In this document: positions 14,714 to 63,436 of the stretch, one piece after another
How the letters are laid out: each line of letters starts with the position of its first letter
Position numbering within the stretch: the stretch's first letter is position 1
Assembly: GCF_015277775.1 (NCBI RefSeq)
Contig: NZ_CP063849.1
Coordinates: 7,455,501 to 7,519,500 of the forward strand
Source of the DNA: Paludibaculum fermentans
Lineage (GTDB): Bacteria > Acidobacteriota > Terriglobia > Bryobacterales > Bryobacteraceae
Direction: 5' to 3'
DNA length: 64,000 nt
Made by a program: the position numbers and the translations under genes
Notes under the pieces: model-generated
The model's database searches: none
Told to the model about the DNA's origin: nothing
Seen by the model: the letters and a program-made list of their open reading frames with translations, nothing else

Positions 14714-17029
14714 ATGCGGTGCATGCGGCAGATTACGATGGTTGCGCTCATCCTGGCAGCCTCAGCAGGTTTCCTGGCAGCCCAGGATCCTCCTGGCCGG
14801 GTGGCCCGCCTCAACTACCGGGAAGGGCCCGTGTCCTTCCAGCCGAATGGGGTGGACGAGTGGGTGGACGCCGGCATCAACAGGCCGATGACCACGGGCG
14901 ACCAGGTCTGGGTGGGCGACGGTGGGCGCTCAGAGTTCCACATCGGTTCGATGGCCTTGCGGCTCAGCGCGCACTCCGATTTCGAGTTCCTGAATCTGGA
15001 CGATCAAACGGTTCAAATCCGTCTCTCTGAGGGTTCCCTGCTCATCCGCTTGCGCAATCTTGCCGCAGGCCAGGTGGTGGAGATCGACACGCCGAATCTG
15101 GCGTTTAACCTCAGGCGGCCTGGCATCTACCGCATCGATGCGCGCCCCGATTCCCAAACGACGGTGGTCACCGTGCGTGATGGCGAAGGAGAAGTGACTG
15201 GTGATGGCCAGTCTTTCCCGCTCTACGCGCGGCAGCGGGCGGAAGTGCGCGGCGGGGACCAGTTGGAATACAACCTCACGCCCGCTGGCGGCGGCGATGA
15301 ATTCGACCAATGGTGTTCCTCGCGCGACCGCCGGGAGGATCAATCGCAGTCGGCGCGCTACGTTTCCCGCGAGGTTCCGGGCTACGACGACCTGGACCAA
15401 TACGGCAGTTGGTCGAACCAGCCTGACTACGGTCCAGTGTGGATGCCCGCGTCGGTGGCCTCAGGTTGGGCTCCCTATCATGACGGGCATTGGGCCTGGA
15501 TTGCCCCATGGGGTTGGACTTGGGTGGACGATGCCCCCTGGGGGTTCGCACCCTACCATTACGGACGTTGGGCTTCCTTCGGTGGACGCTGGGGTTGGGT
15601 CCCCGGTCCCAGCGGAGTCGCTCCGACCTACGCGCCGGCCATGGTCGCCTGGGTGGGCGGAGGGGGTGGCGGCTCCGGATTCAGCATGAGCTTCTCGACG
15701 GGAACCGCCGCAGCGATCGGCTGGTTTGCCCTGGGCCCGCGTGAGCCCTACTACCCGTCGTATCCCGTGAGCCAGCGCTACTTCAGCCGAGTGAACAGCA
15801 CGAACACGGTGATCAACAACGTCACCATCAACAACTATTACAATTCGCGGAATACCCGGAATACGAACGCGGTTTACGTGAACCAGCGGGTCCAGAACGG
15901 TGTCATCGCGGTGCCCCAGAGCGCCTTTGCCAGCGGCGGCCGCGTGAATCAATATGCTCGTCCCGTGAGTGCCGCGCAGGTTGCTGCGGTCCACATTGCT
16001 CCAGGGCCGTTCATCGTGCCGCAGCGCCAGAGTGTCCTGGGTCCGCAGGGCGGCTCCAACGGCCGGCCTGCGATGAGACCTCCAGCCAGCGTGCTCACCC
16101 GGCGGGTGGTCGCGAGGACCGCGCCGCCGCCGGCTGCCCTGCCTTTCGACCGTCAGCAGGCCGCGCTCGCGAGGAATCCCGGTCGTCCCCTGCCGGTAGC
16201 CGAGGTGCGCCAGATTCGGCAGGCCGCCCCGGCGCCTGCTCCCCAGGTGCGCGTCGTGGACATGAGCAAGGTGAAGCGGATCCAGCCGGCAATGCATACG
16301 GATGCGCGTCCGGGACAGCAGCCCAATGCCCCGCAGGCGCCAGGCCCCGAGCGTAAGAATTTTCCGTCAGGACAACAGCCGCAGAAGCAGCAGCAACAGG
16401 ATGCGCGGGAGCAGCAGCAGAAGCAACAGCAGGATGCTCAGCGCGGGCTGCGGGAGAAGCAAGAGCAAGGACACCCAGCGCTTGCAGCAGGAGAAGCAGC
16501 TACGGATGCGCGTCCGGGACAGCAGCCCAATGCCCCGCAGGCGCCAGGCCCCGAGCGTAAGAATTTTCCGTCAGGACAACAGCCGCAGAAGCAGCAGCAA
16601 CAGGATGCGCGGGAGCAGCAGCAGAAGCAACAGCAGGATGCTCAGCGCGGGCTGCGGGAGAAGCATTTCCGTCAGGACAACAGCCGCAGAAGAAGCAGCA
16701 ACAGGATGCGCGTGAGCAGCAACAGAAGCAACAGCAGGATGCTCAGCGCGGGACAGCGGGAAAAGCAGCAGCAGGACACCCAGCGGTTGCAGCAGCAGAA
16801 ACAGCAGCAGGATGCCCGGGAGCAGCAGCAGAAACAACAGCAGGACGCTCAGCGGGCACAGCGCGAGAAACAGCAGCAGGATGCCCGGGAGCAGCAGATG
16901 AGGCAACAGCGGGAGGCCCAACAACGCCAGAAAGCGGCACCGGCTCCTCGAGCCCCCGCACCGCAGCCGCGCCCGGAGCCCAAGAAGGAGCAGAAACCGC
17001 CAGAGAAGGAAGATAAGCCGAAGAACTAA
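14714..17029 (+). CDS. FecR-domain / DUF6600-like secreted protein with Gln-rich C-terminal tail
   Basis: 771 residues from ATG 14714 (AGGAG at 14703-14707); the longer frame from 14570 reads through leader sequence. Order: signal peptide (1-23, ending FLAAQ), a FecR-like beta domain (about 40-170: SEFHIGSMALRLSAHSDFEF, RLRNLAAGQVVEIDTPN), and a Trp/Gly/Tyr-rich middle (about 230-360: DGHWAWIAPWGWTWVDDAPW) of the DUF6600 type. A Pro/Ala linker follows, then a low-complexity KQQQDAREQQQ tail from about residue 555 with a 165-bp direct repeat and a frame-slipped third copy. The tail is probably a coiled or disordered envelope-spanning segment. Function unknown; no sigma/anti-sigma partner sits beside it. 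Confidence 0.8.
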   Translation: MRCMRQITMVALILAASAGFLAAQDPPGRVARLNYREGPVSFQPNGVDEWVDAGINRPMTTGDQVWVGDGGRSEFHIGSMALRLSAHSDFEFLNLDDQTVQIRLSEGSLLIRLRNLAAGQVVEIDTPNLAFNLRRPGIYRIDARPDSQTTVVTVRDGEGEVTGDGQSFPLYARQRAEVRGGDQLEYNLTPAGGGDEFDQWCSSRDRREDQSQSARYVSREVPGYDDLDQYGSWSNQPDYGPVWMPASVASGWAPYHDGHWAWIAPWGWTWVDDAPWGFAPYHYGRWASFGGRWGWVPGPSGVAPTYAPAMVAWVGGGGGGSGFSMSFSTGTAAAIGWFALGPREPYYPSYPVSQRYFSRVNSTNTVINNVTINNYYNSRNTRNTNAVYVNQRVQNGVIAVPQSAFASGGRVNQYARPVSAAQVAAVHIAPGPFIVPQRQSVLGPQGGSNGRPAMRPPASVLTRRVVARTAPPPAALPFDRQQAALARNPGRPLPVAEVRQIRQAAPAPAPQVRVVDMSKVKRIQPAMHTDARPGQQPNAPQAPGPERKNFPSGQQPQKQQQQDAREQQQKQQQDAQRGLREKQEQGHPALAAGEAATDARPGQQPNAPQAPGPERKNFPSGQQPQKQQQQDAREQQQKQQQDAQRGLREKHFRQDNSRRRSSNRMRVSSNRSNSRMLSAGQREKQQQDTQRLQQQKQQQDAREQQQKQQQDAQRAQREKQQQDAREQQMRQQREAQQRQKAAPAPRAPAPQPRPEPKKEQKPPEKEDKPKN
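16297..16461 (+). repeat. 165-bp direct repeat, copy 1, inside the FecR-type gene
   Basis: Identical over 165 bases to 16501-16665; the repeat distance is 204 bp (68 codons), with 39 unrelated bases between the copies. It encodes the DARPGQQPNAPQ ... QQQDAQRGLREK stretch. Confidence 0.95.
16501..16665 (+). repeat. 165-bp direct repeat, copy 2, followed by a partial third copy in another frame
   Basis: Perfect match to 16297-16461. Directly after it, from 16666 to about 16750, lies a partial, slightly diverged third copy starting at the TTTCCGTCAGGACAAC segment. This third copy is read one base out of phase, giving an Arg/Ser/Asn-rich peptide (NSRRRSSNRMR) in place of the Gln-rich one. Confidence 0.92.
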
Positions 17030-17754: not shown

Positions 17755-18252
17755 CTACGGCAGGATCTCCACCACGACCCCGTTGGGGACCAGCTTCCAG
17801 ATCTCTTCAATCTCTTCATCCGTCACAGCAACGCAGCCCCAGGTCCAATCGCTTTGCAGGTGGGCTTTCCCCACTGCCCCCTGGCCGTTGGGCAGCCCGT
17901 GTATCAGGATGTCTCCGCCGGGCTGGACGCCCAGTTTCCGCGCCCGCGCCCGGTCTGACTCGTTCGGGTAGGAGATGTGCAGCGCCCTGTGGTACTGGCT
18001 CCTGGCATACCGCCCGTCGATCCGATACAGCCCCTCCGGCGTGCGCATGTCCCCTTGCTGCACCTTGGCTCCCACCGGCTGCTTCCCTAACGCCACTTTG
18101 TAAGTCCGGAAGACTTTGCCGTTCTGGAGCAGTAGCAACTCGCGTCGGGCCTTGTGGATAACGATGCGGTCCGCTTGCTCAGCCGCACGGAGCAGAGCCA
18201 GCGGGACGGCCAGCAAGCAGCTTGCGAAGGCGAGGGCGCTTCGGCGAGTCAT
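17755..18252 (-). CDS. L,D-transpeptidase (YkuD domain)
   Basis: A 165-residue exported protein: signal peptide 1-23, then a YkuD domain. The catalytic region is seen as H118 in LIHGLPNG and the nucleophile C140 in WTWGCVAVTDEEIEEIW, a variant of the usual SHGC box in which Trp-Gly precedes Cys. The family makes 3-3 peptidoglycan crosslinks or attaches proteins to peptidoglycan in the periplasm. It is short, with only the catalytic domain and no LysM or peptidoglycan-binding module. Convergent with the LRR gene and divergent from the retron promoter 50 bases beyond its start. Confidence 0.88.
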   Translation of the reverse strand: MTRRSALAFASCLLAVPLALLRAAEQADRIVIHKARRELLLLQNGKVFRTYKVALGKQPVGAKVQQGDMRTPEGLYRIDGRYARSQYHRALHISYPNESDRARARKLGVQPGGDILIHGLPNGQGAVGKAHLQSDWTWGCVAVTDEEIEEIWKLVPNGVVVEILP

Positions 18253-18302
18253 CGAACTCCATTCTAGTGCGACGGGTCCGGCATCCCCGGTCGGCTGGGG
18301 GC

Positions 18303-18331
18303 TTGGGCCCGGATTTCCGGCTTGTTATAGT
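18303..18331 (+). promoter_or_regulatory. sigma-70-like promoter of the retron RNA
   Basis: TTGGGC (18303-18308), a 17-base spacer, and TATAGT (18326-18331). The predicted start about 7 bases downstream (18338-18339) coincides with the first base of the a1 strand of the retron RNA. AT-rich hexamers at this spacing are rare in this GC-rich window. Confidence 0.65.
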
Positions 18332-18338
18332 ACGGACG

Positions 18339-18508
18339 GCGGCCGGATGTTCCAAGCTCGGTCTGAATCGGTCATTCGTGTTCGATTCAGCCTCTCTGGG
18401 GTTACCCCAGGGCATCGGGAATAGCCAGGCATTCGTCGCGTGTGCTTCGGCTGCGCTGTCGCGCAGTTCTGCCCACGCCAGGTGAGACTCGTTGGAGCAT
18501 CCGGACGC
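18339..18508 (+). ncRNA. retron msr-msd RNA (template and primer RNA for msDNA)
   Basis: The two ends pair as retron a1/a2. CCGGATGTTCCAA (18343-18355) pairs with TTGGAGCATCCGG (18492-18504) over 13 positions with one G-U wobble; beyond one mismatch a further 3 bp (18339-18341 with 506-508) extend it. Right after a1 comes AGC (18355-18357); G18356 is the expected branching guanosine by analogy with the UAGC of retron Ec86. The msr part has two hairpins: CTGAATCG/CGATTCAG (18363-18370 with 18383-18390) and CTGGGG-TTA-CCCCAG (18396-18410). The msd-like part has an imperfect long stem from 18438 to 18478, capped by CTGCGC-TGTC-GCGCAG. The RT gene starts 8 bases after a2. The exact msr/msd boundary cannot be fixed by eye. 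Confidence 0.78.
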
Positions 18509-18516
18509 GCCCGGCC

Positions 18517-19824
18517 ATGGCTAACCCCGCACTTCTCTCGATCCTGGCCCGCTGCTTTGCCAGTGGAGAACCCACCGCGGACGGGATCGCCGCGCGCACC
18601 GCGCAAGCGCTGGGCCGGCCATGGTTCTGGCTGCTCCCACTCGCCCGGCGCTATCTCAAGGCGCACGGCGCGCTCACTCGGCCCAAGCGGCAGGAGGTGA
18701 TCCGGTTTCTCCTCGACGACACAGGGTTCAGGCACCGCGCCCACAAGCTCTCCGTCGCGAAATGGCTCACTGAGCCTCAGCGCATGCAGCCGGTGCAGGC
18801 CGCTGCTGAATGGAACCTGCCGGAACTCGTGACCGAAGGCGATCTGGCGTCCTGGCTCTCTGTTCGTCCCGAGGAGTTGGACTGGTTCGCCGACCCGAAA
18901 GGATTGAATGCCCGGACGAGCAGACCGCCGCTGGAGCACTACCACTACCGGGTTCTCGCCAAGAGGCGCGGAGGTATCCGGCTGATCGAGGCGCCCAAAC
19001 CGCGGCTCAAGGAGATGCAGCGCCAGATCTTGGGCGAAATCCTGGATCTCGTGCCGGCTCACCCGGCGGCGCATGGCTTCTGCCCGGGCCGGTCCATTCG
19101 CACATTCGCCGAGCCGCACGTCGGGCGGCCGGTTGTCCTTCGAATGGATCTGCAGGATTTCTTCCCGTCCCTACCGGCTGCCCGCATCCAAGCTGTCTTC
19201 CGGACCCTCGGGTATCCCGAGTTGGTAGCCGATCTGTTGGCGGGCGTCTGCACCAATCGAACCCACTCCAGCGTGTTGCGGACCCCACGACCGGCGATCC
19301 CGCAGGTGGAGCTGATCGAAGCGCGCCGTCTCTACCACTGGCCGCATCTCCCGCAAGGTGCGCCCACCTCGCCGGCCCTGGCCAATCTGTGCGCCTACCG
19401 CGCCGATTGCCGGCTGACCGGGCTCGCGCGCAACTTCGGCGCCATCTACACCCGGTATGCCGACGATCTCGCCTTTTCGTTCGGCCAACCGTCGGACGTA
19501 CGCCGGTTCTCGACCTACGCCGCCGCGATCCTCCTGGAGGAGGGCTTTGCCGTCAACCACCGGAAAACACGCATCATGACTCGAGGCATGCAGCAGCGCC
19601 TGGCCGGGTTGGTGACGAATGACCACCTCAACATCCCTCGCTCGGATTTCGACACACTGAAGGCCATCCTGACCAATTGCGTACGCCTTGGGCCCGCAAC
19701 CCAAAACCGCGCGGGTGTGCCCGACTTCCGGGCCCACCTGAATGGCCGTGTCGGTTTTGTCGAATCCATCCACACAGGGAAGGGAAGCCGCCTGCGCGCG
19801 ATTTTTGACAATATTTCCTGGTGA
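18517..19824 (+). CDS. retron-type reverse transcriptase with N-terminal extension
   Basis: 435 residues from ATG 18517; a GTG at 18442 would place the start inside the RNA gene and is disfavoured. An N-terminal helical extension (about 1-115) precedes the RT core. In the core, RMDLQDFFPSL carries D211 of motif A, LPQGAPTSPALANL is motif B, and YADDLAF (Y314-D317) is motif C. A motif D/thumb segment, RLAGLVTNDHLNIPR, follows, where retron RTs have VTG; here it is LAG. The layout ELDWFAD ... KRRGGIRLIEAPKPRLKEMQR resembles myxobacterial retron RTs such as that of Mx162. It would copy the upstream RNA into msDNA. The only GGAG (18494-18497) lies inside a2, so RNA folding may affect translation. 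No effector gene is fused or clearly co-transcribed. Confidence 0.9.
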   Translation: MANPALLSILARCFASGEPTADGIAARTAQALGRPWFWLLPLARRYLKAHGALTRPKRQEVIRFLLDDTGFRHRAHKLSVAKWLTEPQRMQPVQAAAEWNLPELVTEGDLASWLSVRPEELDWFADPKGLNARTSRPPLEHYHYRVLAKRRGGIRLIEAPKPRLKEMQRQILGEILDLVPAHPAAHGFCPGRSIRTFAEPHVGRPVVLRMDLQDFFPSLPAARIQAVFRTLGYPELVADLLAGVCTNRTHSSVLRTPRPAIPQVELIEARRLYHWPHLPQGAPTSPALANLCAYRADCRLTGLARNFGAIYTRYADDLAFSFGQPSDVRRFSTYAAAILLEEGFAVNHRKTRIMTRGMQQRLAGLVTNDHLNIPRSDFDTLKAILTNCVRLGPATQNRAGVPDFRAHLNGRVGFVESIHTGKGSRLRAIFDNISW

Positions 19825-19854: not shown

Positions 19855-20670
19855 ATGCGGGCTTCGTGTGGTCTCAGATCACGCACTGGCGCCCTTCTGG
19901 GACTTCTCTTGCTGGGCGCTCTCCTGGCGTTCGCGCAGATTCGCGACCGTGTCTGGGCTCGCTATGAACACGAGATGCAGGATCCGGTGGAGGACCCGCC
20001 CGACGCCCTGCACAAAGCTGAGTTTGCCCTGGGCCGCCTGCGCTACCGTTCGCCGATGGACCGCGGCCGCCGCTATTACCGCTGGGGCATCGACGTCAAC
20101 AAAGGTGACCGCATCTTTGTTTCGCTCCTGAAACGCCTGACACGGGTGGACATACAGCCCATCGAGACCATCGTCGATGTCAGTAGCGATGAGATCTTCA
20201 ACCTGCCCTGGATCTTCGCCGGTTCGGTTGGCGATTGGCGGCTTTCCCCCACTGAGGCCGAGCGGCTCCGGAAGTACTTCGATCGCGGCGGGTTCCTGAT
20301 GGTCGACGACTTCCACAACGAGCGCGAGTGGGCCAACTTCATGGCCGGCATTCATCAGATCGACCCCACCGCCCGGGTGGAGGAACTGGAAGACGGGGAC
20401 CCCGCCTTTCGCACTGTATTCGACCTGAAGCAGCGAGTGCGGGTGCCGGGCGCCAACGTCGTCCACGGCGATATGATCGAGCGCGGCGGAGTCGAGCCTC
20501 ACTGGCGCGCCATCCGCGACGGCCAGGGGCGCATGAAAGTCGCCATCTGTTTCAATATGGATGTCGGAGACGGCTGGGAGTTCGCCGATGATCCTGACTA
20601 TCCGGAACGGTTTTCCTCTGAAGCGATCCGGCTCGGAGTGAACTACGTCATTTACTCCATGACCCATTAG
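19855..20670 (+). CDS. DUF4159 protein
   Basis: 271 residues. A signal/anchor segment at about 12-28 (GALLGLLLLGALLAFAQI) is followed by a DUF4159 domain, recognisable by GRLRYRSPMDRGRRYYRWGIDVN, LRKYFDRGGFLMVDDFHNEREW and the end VNYVIYSMTH. The fold is related to class I glutamine-amidotransferase-like domains. DUF4159 genes usually sit with MoxR, DUF58 and VWA/BatA genes, and such a set begins 1.65 kb downstream, so a shared envelope function is likely. It starts 30 bases after the RT stop but is probably not a retron effector. Confidence 0.82.
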   Translation: MRASCGLRSRTGALLGLLLLGALLAFAQIRDRVWARYEHEMQDPVEDPPDALHKAEFALGRLRYRSPMDRGRRYYRWGIDVNKGDRIFVSLLKRLTRVDIQPIETIVDVSSDEIFNLPWIFAGSVGDWRLSPTEAERLRKYFDRGGFLMVDDFHNEREWANFMAGIHQIDPTARVEELEDGDPAFRTVFDLKQRVRVPGANVVHGDMIERGGVEPHWRAIRDGQGRMKVAICFNMDVGDGWEFADDPDYPERFSSEAIRLGVNYVIYSMTH

Positions 20671-62533: not shown

Positions 62534-62653
62534 GGAAAGGCGACAGCCTGACCCGTCCCACTTCGTAAGCAATTGAACGAACAGAGCTTACTGGGAAAGG
62601 CGACAGCCTGACCCGTCCCACTTCGTAAGCAATTGAACGAACAGAGCTTACTG
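62534..62653 (-). repeat. two perfect 60-bp tandem units at the transposase breakpoint
   Basis: Units 62534-62593 and 62594-62653 are identical (beginning GGAAAGGCGACAGCCTGACC) and directly abut the broken 5' end of the IS66 gene. Four bases of a third unit follow. Confidence 0.93.
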
Positions 62654-63436
62654 GGAACTCCGAGCACTTCGCCTCGGTTTTGGCATCTATTGACGGGATC
62701 TGTCTGGCCGCCTCGCCAGACGCATAAATGCCACAGCATCAACAGCATGCGGTTCACGCTGCGGCTCAATGCGCGAGGAATGCGACCCAGGCTATCCTGA
62801 TTCCAGCCATCACAATTGCCACTGGGACGCATCAGTTCGAACGCAACGCTGGCCACAGCAAGCCCCCTGATCTAATCCTCCTCGAAGCAGGACCAAACTG
62901 ACGGGCAGGAGCTGCGCGCCCCCGCCCGCACCCACTCCGCGGGTGACTGGGGGGCAACAAGAACCCGCACGTCCTTCGCCGCCCTACGGGCGTCTCGTCC
63001 GTGCAAATGGGGCATCTCTTGACCTCCTCCCCCCGACCCCCTCCTCGGCCTGCGGCCGAAGCGGGGGCGCCGTCCTGCGACAGGACCCTGCGGCCGCCGT
63101 CGTGCAGCCGCCCGAACTGACGGCGAGGGCACGCCGGCGGCCGCCTGGACGTCTTCCTCGGGTGGGAGCCAGCCCACAAATCCGCGCCACGACCCCACTT
63201 TTATCTCAATTCCATCATTAACCCATCTTCATTCACCGCCGGTCGGGTTATTTATCTCCCCTACTTCCCACCACTTGCGAGCCACACGCCCGGCAGCCCA
63301 CCAACTCACGGCTATAATCCGCCCACTGGACACCGCGGTCTGTCCGCATCCAGCCGATCTTTGACTTCAGAACCTCCACACTTCCGCCGGAGGAGTCCGT
63401 CTTCACGCCATGAAAGGGAAGCGAATGCCGGGATTA
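62654..63436. other. gene-free GC-rich stretch
   Basis: To about 62770 it is the extended part of the 60-bp-repeat family. From there to 63436 no frame on either strand has convincing coding character; several overlapping Arg/Pro/Ala-rich frames exist only because stops are rare in GC-rich DNA. No terminal inverted repeat of the transposon was identified. Confidence 0.5.

What the first reader, a model, noticed from the sequence alone, without database searches (positions are those of the whole stretch)
18303..19824. Complete, apparently undescribed retron: promoter, msr-msd RNA and reverse transcriptase
Seen: a TTGGGC-N17-TATAGT promoter whose predicted start falls on the first base of a1. 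The a1/a2 arms (18343-18355 with 18492-18504) pair at 13 of 13 positions with one wobble, plus a 3-bp extension. An AGC follows a1 for the branching guanosine. Two msr hairpins and an msd-like long stem are present. An RT with motifs DLQDFF, QGAPTSP and YADD starts 8 bases later. Known: this order and the a1/a2 pairing are diagnostic of retrons, which make msDNA and often act in phage defence. The pieces agree independently, which makes chance unlikely.
Basis: partly seen in the sequence, partly recalled or inferred. Interest (0 to 1): 0.88.

Follow-up and report, generated by a model that had tools for sequence, protein, structure and literature searches.

The report
Stand-alone retron of an uncharacterised clade
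This locus from an Acidobacteria relative carries a complete retron, a reverse transcriptase plus the RNA it would copy into a small DNA, belonging to a widespread but little-studied branch that seems to have no effector gene next to it.

Summary
Window 18303-19824 has an ncRNA with a1/a2 arms, a branching-G context, two msr hairpins and an msd stem, then, 8 nt later, an intact 435-aa reverse transcriptase (RT). The a1/a2 helix covaries: 10 of 12 pairs change on both sides, 20 of 30 pairs overall. A covariance model from 22 loci finds the RNA upstream of the RT in 59 of 64 further genome-contig loci and 6 of 6 family loci, and in none of 76 loci of other RTs at E 0.1.

The RT falls among retrons, in one clade (51 rows, SH-aLRT 100) apart from myxobacterial Mx65/Mx162. 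PADLOC already holds the clade as RT_other/RT_outgroup; the RNA matches no Rfam family.

Unlike tripartite defence retrons, no neighbour gene is conserved: at most 3 of 84 loci share one within 2.5 kb. Phage defence is therefore untested here. Verdict: a real retron, a new member of a known kind, notable as an effector-less clade that by record titles spans seven phyla.

The parts
18303..18331 (+). putative promoter: TTGGGC 18303-18308, 17-nt spacer, TATAGT 18326-18331
   Evidence: sequence; -10-like hexamer at a similar place in 26 of 32 loci; DNA homology with congener G006 starts at 18302; standard consensus scan finds none
18339..18355 (+). a1 arm (core 18343-18355)
   Evidence: pairs with a2; 10 of 12 consensus pairs with two-sided changes
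18356..18356 (+). predicted branching guanosine (CCAAGC)
   Evidence: G in 97% of the 72 of 106 model-aligned matches longer than 150 letters (a few loci are in twice); the 2',5' bond itself is inferred
18360..18392 (+). msr hairpin SL1 (sequence variable, hairpin kept)
   Evidence: a hairpin is predicted in 22 of 22 sequences; energy at or below p 0.05 of mononucleotide shuffles in 15 of 22; not part of the 30-pair consensus
18394..18412 (+). msr hairpin SL2, 8 bp with 3-nt UUA loop, nearly invariant
   Evidence: 98.9% of cells paired, 3 of 8 pairs with two-sided changes; seen across distant loci
18438..18478 (+). msd stem-loop
   Evidence: helices 3 and 4: 4 of 6 and 3 of 4 pairs with two-sided changes
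18424..18491 (+). predicted msd template; copying would start opposite G18491, the other limit is approximate
   Evidence: position beside the a1/a2 helix and conserved GACTCGTTGG; start and end of copying are inferred
18492..18508 (+). a2 arm
   Evidence: as a1
18517..19824 (+). retron reverse transcriptase, 435 aa, with helical N-terminal extension (about residues 1-95)
   Evidence: RVT_1 3.8e-21; PADLOC RT_other 491 bits; AlphaFold mean pLDDT 94.0; best 18 PDB matches are retron RTs; dN/dS 0.16-0.18 in three congener comparisons

Best explanation
The locus is a chromosomal, two-part retron. One transcript starting near 18339 carries msr-msd and then the RT. The RNA folds by a1/a2 pairing; the RT grips the conserved SL2 hairpin, uses the 2'-OH of G18356 as primer, and copies the msd from about G18491 back to about 18424-18432; host RNase H trims the template. 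The product would be a branched msDNA of roughly 60-68 nt of DNA with one stem-loop, joined to a short RNA with two hairpins. Shown here: anatomy, covariation, kinship, lack of gene linkage. Inferred from characterised retrons: start of transcription, SL2 binding, priming, length and processing. Its role in the cell is unknown; no effector is linked, so I think it most likely that the msDNA-RT complex works with a partner encoded elsewhere.
For: Covariation: 20 of 30 pairs two-sided, 0 of 500 shuffles as high, slid structures give 4-10. Model R1 hits with E<=0.01 on the right strand upstream of the RT: 59 of 64 genome-contig loci outside the training set plus 6 of 6 family loci; none at E 0.1 in 76 control RT loci, best 0.76 away from the RT; one hit only in the window's own genome. 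RT tree: 51 rows as one side of a branch, SH-aLRT 100, within the retron rows, which part from four other RTs of the own genome at 99. Structure: top 18 PDB matches are retron RTs, best Ec86 at 6.6e-22. RT dN/dS 0.16-0.18; ncRNA keeps 161 and 155 of 170 bases in two congeners. Ec86 and Ec73 RTs bind an 8-9 bp msr stem with a 3-nt loop (PMC6868368, passages); SL2 resembles it.
Against: No msDNA has been observed. The window departs from the usual retron RT motifs: FAEPH for NAXXH and LAG for VTG. The promoter is weak by consensus. The predicted msDNA fold is not unusual against shuffles (z -0.96). Five of 64 loci lacked a proper model hit: L081 and L110 (cut by contig ends), L104 (minus strand only), L112 (E 0.018), L116 (none).
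Confidence: 0.9

Rival explanations
1. It is a classical tripartite anti-phage retron whose effector is the gene just downstream (DUF4159, 19855-20670) or another neighbour.
For: DUF4159 follows the RT by 30 nt on the same strand and keeps that place in congeners G002 and G006.
Against: DUF4159 genes are general: 30 of 31 genomes searched have a match, and RT-lacking G005, G007, G008 and G013 keep a 74-77% copy. Only 3 of 84 clade loci have it beside the RT. It has no PADLOC match, evolves slowly (dN/dS 0.025-0.055) and lies by MoxR, DUF58 and VWA genes.
Confidence: 0.04
2. It is an anti-phage retron whose effector is encoded in trans, or is the RT's own N-terminal extension.
For: 57 of 60 clade loci examined keep room for an extension of similar length between the RNA and the RT core. 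The RT is more divergent from G002 (80% identity) than five downstream genes (87-98%), as defence genes can be. The clade is patchy in the family.
Against: Three of the 60 (L011, L061, and L112 with a weak RNA hit) have the RNA abutting the RT core, so the extension is not essential to the clade. Two upstream genes, LRR and DUF6600, are as divergent as the RT (73% and 79%). The extension has no Pfam match above cut-off in five members scanned, and its separate model was poor (pLDDT 59.5). No trans partner was sought.
Confidence: 0.37
3. It has a host, non-defence role, for instance sensing or titrating a DNA-binding protein through the msDNA stem.
For: Lies in a 9.5-Mb contig. Rare in phage records: 28 match, 0 cover 80% of the query. 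The 80 viral-contig loci kept are distant, best 41%. No effector linkage. The msd stem looks conserved in sequence beyond pairing, judged by eye.
Against: Patchy distribution and relatively fast RT evolution fit a dispensable or arms-race gene.
Confidence: 0.3
4. The RT belongs to a group II intron, DGR or DRT rather than a retron.
For: Weak cross-matches: group II 40.6 bits against cut-off 300, Drt2 35.6 against 390.
Against: Tree, structure ranking and linked msr-msd. DGR and DRT RTs were not in the tree.
Confidence: 0.02
5. It is a decayed, inactive remnant.
For: None found.
Against: Open frame, intact YADD, dN/dS 0.16-0.18, compensatory changes in the arms.
Confidence: 0.03

Closest known systems
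PADLOC RT_other (PDLC02949) / RT_outgroup (PDLC03740)
   Same: Best models for the window RT (491 and 468 bits) and for 8 further clade members scanned; the match covers residues 5-435, extension included.
   Different: These are RT models only. The PADLOC paper says msr-msd covariance models exist (PMC9252829, passages); I could not check whether they cover this RNA.
Myxobacterial retrons Mx65 and Mx162 (PADLOC RT_XIII)
   Same: Long N-terminal region (PMC6868368, passages); 45% and 42% identity to the window RT over part of the protein.
   Different: They score best with RT_XIII, lie outside the clade in the tree, keep VTG, and this RNA model finds nothing significant at their loci. The same genome also carries a separate member of the window's clade (L231).
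Retron Ec86 (Eco1)
   Same: Closest solved structure by sequence and by fold; msr recognition stem of 8 bp with 3-nt loop (PMC6868368, passages).
   Different: Ec86 is solved with an effector (title of 7v9x) and shows NATPH and VTG in the alignment; the window has no linked effector and has FAEPH and LAG.
Effector-less retrons noted in surveys
   Different: This clade and its RNA are not named in the passages I saw.

Membership tests
retron | RT of retron lineage | tested here: met
retron | ncRNA upstream of RT with inverted a1/a2 arms | tested here: met
retron | conserved guanosine right after a1 (AGC context) | tested here: met
retron | msr hairpins and long msd stem | tested here: met
retron | region X NAXXH and region Y VTG (14 of 16 validated retrons for NAXXH, 14 for VTG; PMC6868368, passages) | tested here: not met
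   FAEPH and LAG in the window; clade members vary and some have NAXXH or VTG. Validated retrons with exceptions exist, so this is usual, not strictly defining
retron | production of 2',5'-branched msDNA | not testable with these tools
   needs a bench experiment
tripartite anti-phage retron | linked effector gene or fused effector domain | tested here: not met
   no neighbour family in more than 3 of 84 loci within 2.5 kb; no recognised fused domain
type XIII (Mx162/Mx65) | RT groups with Mx162/Mx65 | tested here: not met
group II intron or DGR RT | RT groups with those RTs | tested here: not met
   four other own-genome RTs, called group II-like by me, part from retrons at 99; DGR RTs appear only lower in the fold ranking, not in the tree

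The most novel reading that the evidence does not exclude
A retron clade that by record titles spans Acidobacteriota, Planctomycetota, Verrucomicrobiota, Gemmatimonadota, Pseudomonadota, Myxococcota and Actinomycetota, with its own deeply conserved msr-msd and divergent X and Y motifs, works without a dedicated effector gene: a host protein that reads the sequence-conserved msDNA stem, or in most members the RT's helical N-terminal extension, carries out the response.
Probability: 0.33. Interest if true: 0.75.

Novelty: new member of a known kind. Interest (0 to 1): 0.5.

Why it matters
Most well-studied retrons guard a toxic effector. A large clade with a conserved RNA but no linked effector reopens the old question of what msDNA does on its own. 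A genome that matches Myxococcus xanthus DSM 16526 carries a member beside Mx65 and Mx162, so the question can be tested in a lab organism. The covariance model also makes further members easy to find.

Tried and rejected
Group II/DGR/DRT identity: rejected on tree, fold ranking and linked RNA. DUF4159 as effector: rejected. Identity with Mx65/Mx162: rejected. L233 is called Mx162 from its 485-aa length and a start that I recall, and from its RT_XIII score, not from a record. Empty insertion site: not resolved; RT-lacking relatives keep DUF4159 but have other genes upstream. Rfam: nothing at gathering score; two chance rows at E up to 10. Separate model of residues 1-105: too poor to search. 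The viral library of fold search was not used.

Limits of the controls. The neighbour control is imperfect: viral loci also share phage gene order. Within 5 kb clusters reached 6 of 84 loci, at scattered positions and on both strands; some loci end at contig ends, so flanks are short. L083 (RT frame broken) was dropped before neighbour counts and tree. The tree took 50 of 84 clade rows plus L231, and left out four reference rows (L203, L213, L215, L220). The 22 training RNAs were chosen for visible geometry out of 40 extracted. The 64 test loci include near relatives of each other. Several phylum labels rest on MAG titles. An earlier count said 27 of 32 for the -10 hexamer; one search gives 26 of 32. 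On checking this report I ran, which shows that the N-terminal extension is missing in 3 of 60 loci; I lowered two odds for that (0.40 to 0.37, 0.35 to 0.33).

Literature: the classification paper (10.1093/nar/gkaa1149) is not held. Searches bearing on this clade: (listings); passages read in PMC6868368, PMC8934634, PMC9252829, PMC8867640 and PMC12548924. No title or passage seen named this RNA; most subscription papers are not in the library.

Full report
What is there. The window holds, on the + strand, a promoter-like pair (18303-18331), an RNA element (18339-18508) and an open frame of 435 aa (18517-19824). The protein matches RVT_1 (3.8e-21), retron RTs of the PDB (Ec86, 2.6e-34) and, best, the PADLOC models RT_other (491 bits) and RT_outgroup (468), ahead of RT_XIII (312). 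NCBIfam retron models match below their cut-offs. No Rfam family matches: none at gathering score over the window, two chance rows at E 3.9 and 9.8 over 18200-18700.

Relatives. Whole-genome search: 30 of 151 genomes match at E<=0.001. Of these 11, window included, match over at least residues 96-431 at 56% identity or more; the rest are fragments, split matches or other RTs. The closest named relative, L041 at 80%, has the contig length of G002, which is in the window's genus, and is titled Acidobacteria bacterium.

The RNA is real. Upstream of the RTs the same architecture recurs. A MAFFT alignment of 22 (A2) gives a consensus of 30 pairs; 20 have two-sided changes, 96.5% of cells pair, and 0 of 500 shuffles reach any of the five measures. 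Structures slid by 1-3 columns give 35-48% paired and 4-10 two-sided pairs. The a1/a2 helix alone has 10 of 12 two-sided pairs. I chose the 22 for visible geometry, so the model search is the fairer test.

Model search. R1 was run on 79 sources. Of 64 genome-contig loci not used in building it (L055, L056, L058, L060-L120), 59 have a + strand hit with E<=0.01 upstream of the RT; L068 is cut by the contig end, and L076 and L120 match only part of the model. The five misses are L081 and L110 (contig ends), L104 (minus strand, 3e-6), L112 (0.018) and L116 (none). Six of six further family loci hit (L028, L030-L034); L035, with only the 3' part of an RT, has no proper hit. Of 76 loci of other RTs, viral and named, the only match up to E 1 is 0.76, away from the RT. 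The own genome has one hit, this one. In the 72 of 106 matches longer than 150 letters the branching G is kept in 97%. Between this RNA and the RT core, 57 of 60 loci have an N-terminal extension of similar length and 3 have none.

Which retron. PADLOC scans of 10 proteins put Mx65 and Mx162 with RT_XIII and the other 8, including a third RT of the same genome, with RT_other/RT_outgroup. In a 64-row tree the 51 clade rows are one side of a branch at SH-aLRT 100, and the 60 retron rows part from four other own-genome RTs at 99. It was a quick search with long branches, so the place of the clade among retrons is unsure. By record titles the clade spans seven phyla; isolates back Acidobacteriota, Pseudomonadota, Myxococcota and Actinomycetota, while Planctomycetota, Verrucomicrobiota and Gemmatimonadota rest on MAGs or metagenome bins. 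Region X reads FAEPH and region Y LAG in the window; the clade is mixed.

No effector. Among 84 loci no neighbour family within 2.5 kb is shared by more than 3; within 5 kb the most is 6, at scattered places. The same pipeline on 67 viral RT loci finds families shared by up to 13, so it can find linkage, though part of that is phage gene order. Of nine neighbouring proteins in the window only a MoxR-type ATPase has weak PADLOC matches, in an ordinary MoxR/DUF58/VWA neighbourhood. In the plasmid collection 105 records match and 3, all Burkholderia replicons of 0.9-1.3 Mb, cover 80% of the query; in the phage collection 28 match and none does.

Selection. Among the window and two congeners the RT has dN/dS 0.16-0.18, against 0.02-0.09 for three downstream genes; the ncRNA keeps 161 and 155 of 170 bases. 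By protein identity with G002 the RT (80%) is more divergent than five downstream genes (87-98%) but like two upstream ones (73% and 79%).

Structure. With 52 aligned sequences the AlphaFold model has mean pLDDT 94.0; residues 1-77 hold five helices. The first 18 PDB matches are retron RTs, followed by group II, DRT and DGR RTs. No function can be read from the extension.

How it works. Shown: RNA anatomy, conservation, kinship, lack of linkage. Inferred from characterised retrons: SL2 binding, priming at G18356, copying from G18491, trimming, and an msDNA of about 60-68 nt. Not known: the role. I give 0.37 to defence with a partner in trans or a built-in domain, and 0.3 to a host role.

Verdict. 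The RT clade is catalogued, but I found no characterisation of it in the searches named in Tried and rejected; its effector-less state is the interesting part.

Noticed in passing
   Followed up: partly
window 18438-18478 and equivalents: The msd stem keeps GCGTGAGC/GCTCACGC-like sequence in many loci, more than pairing alone seems to need; some (L044, L052, L056, L060) show an A-C mismatch there. Judged by eye.
   Followed up: partly
L011, L061, L112: Clade members in which the RNA abuts the RT core, so that the N-terminal extension is missing.
   Followed up: partly
window 16297-16665: Perfect tandem repeat of a 204-bp unit (1.8 copies) inside a long DUF6600 protein gene.
   Followed up: no
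window 62534-62657: Perfect tandem repeat of a 60-bp unit (2.1 copies).
   Followed up: no
window 19855-20670: A DUF4159 gene of a MoxR/DUF58/VWA neighbourhood sits 30 nt behind the RT and close behind it in two congeners; RT-lacking relatives have other genes upstream of it.
   Followed up: partly
L104 5758-5940 and L116: Clade RTs whose upstream RNA is found only on the minus strand (L104) or not at all (L116).
   Followed up: no
own genome, L202-L206: Five further RTs with similar RVT_1 scores in the window's genome; two of them seen to be near-identical.
   Followed up: no
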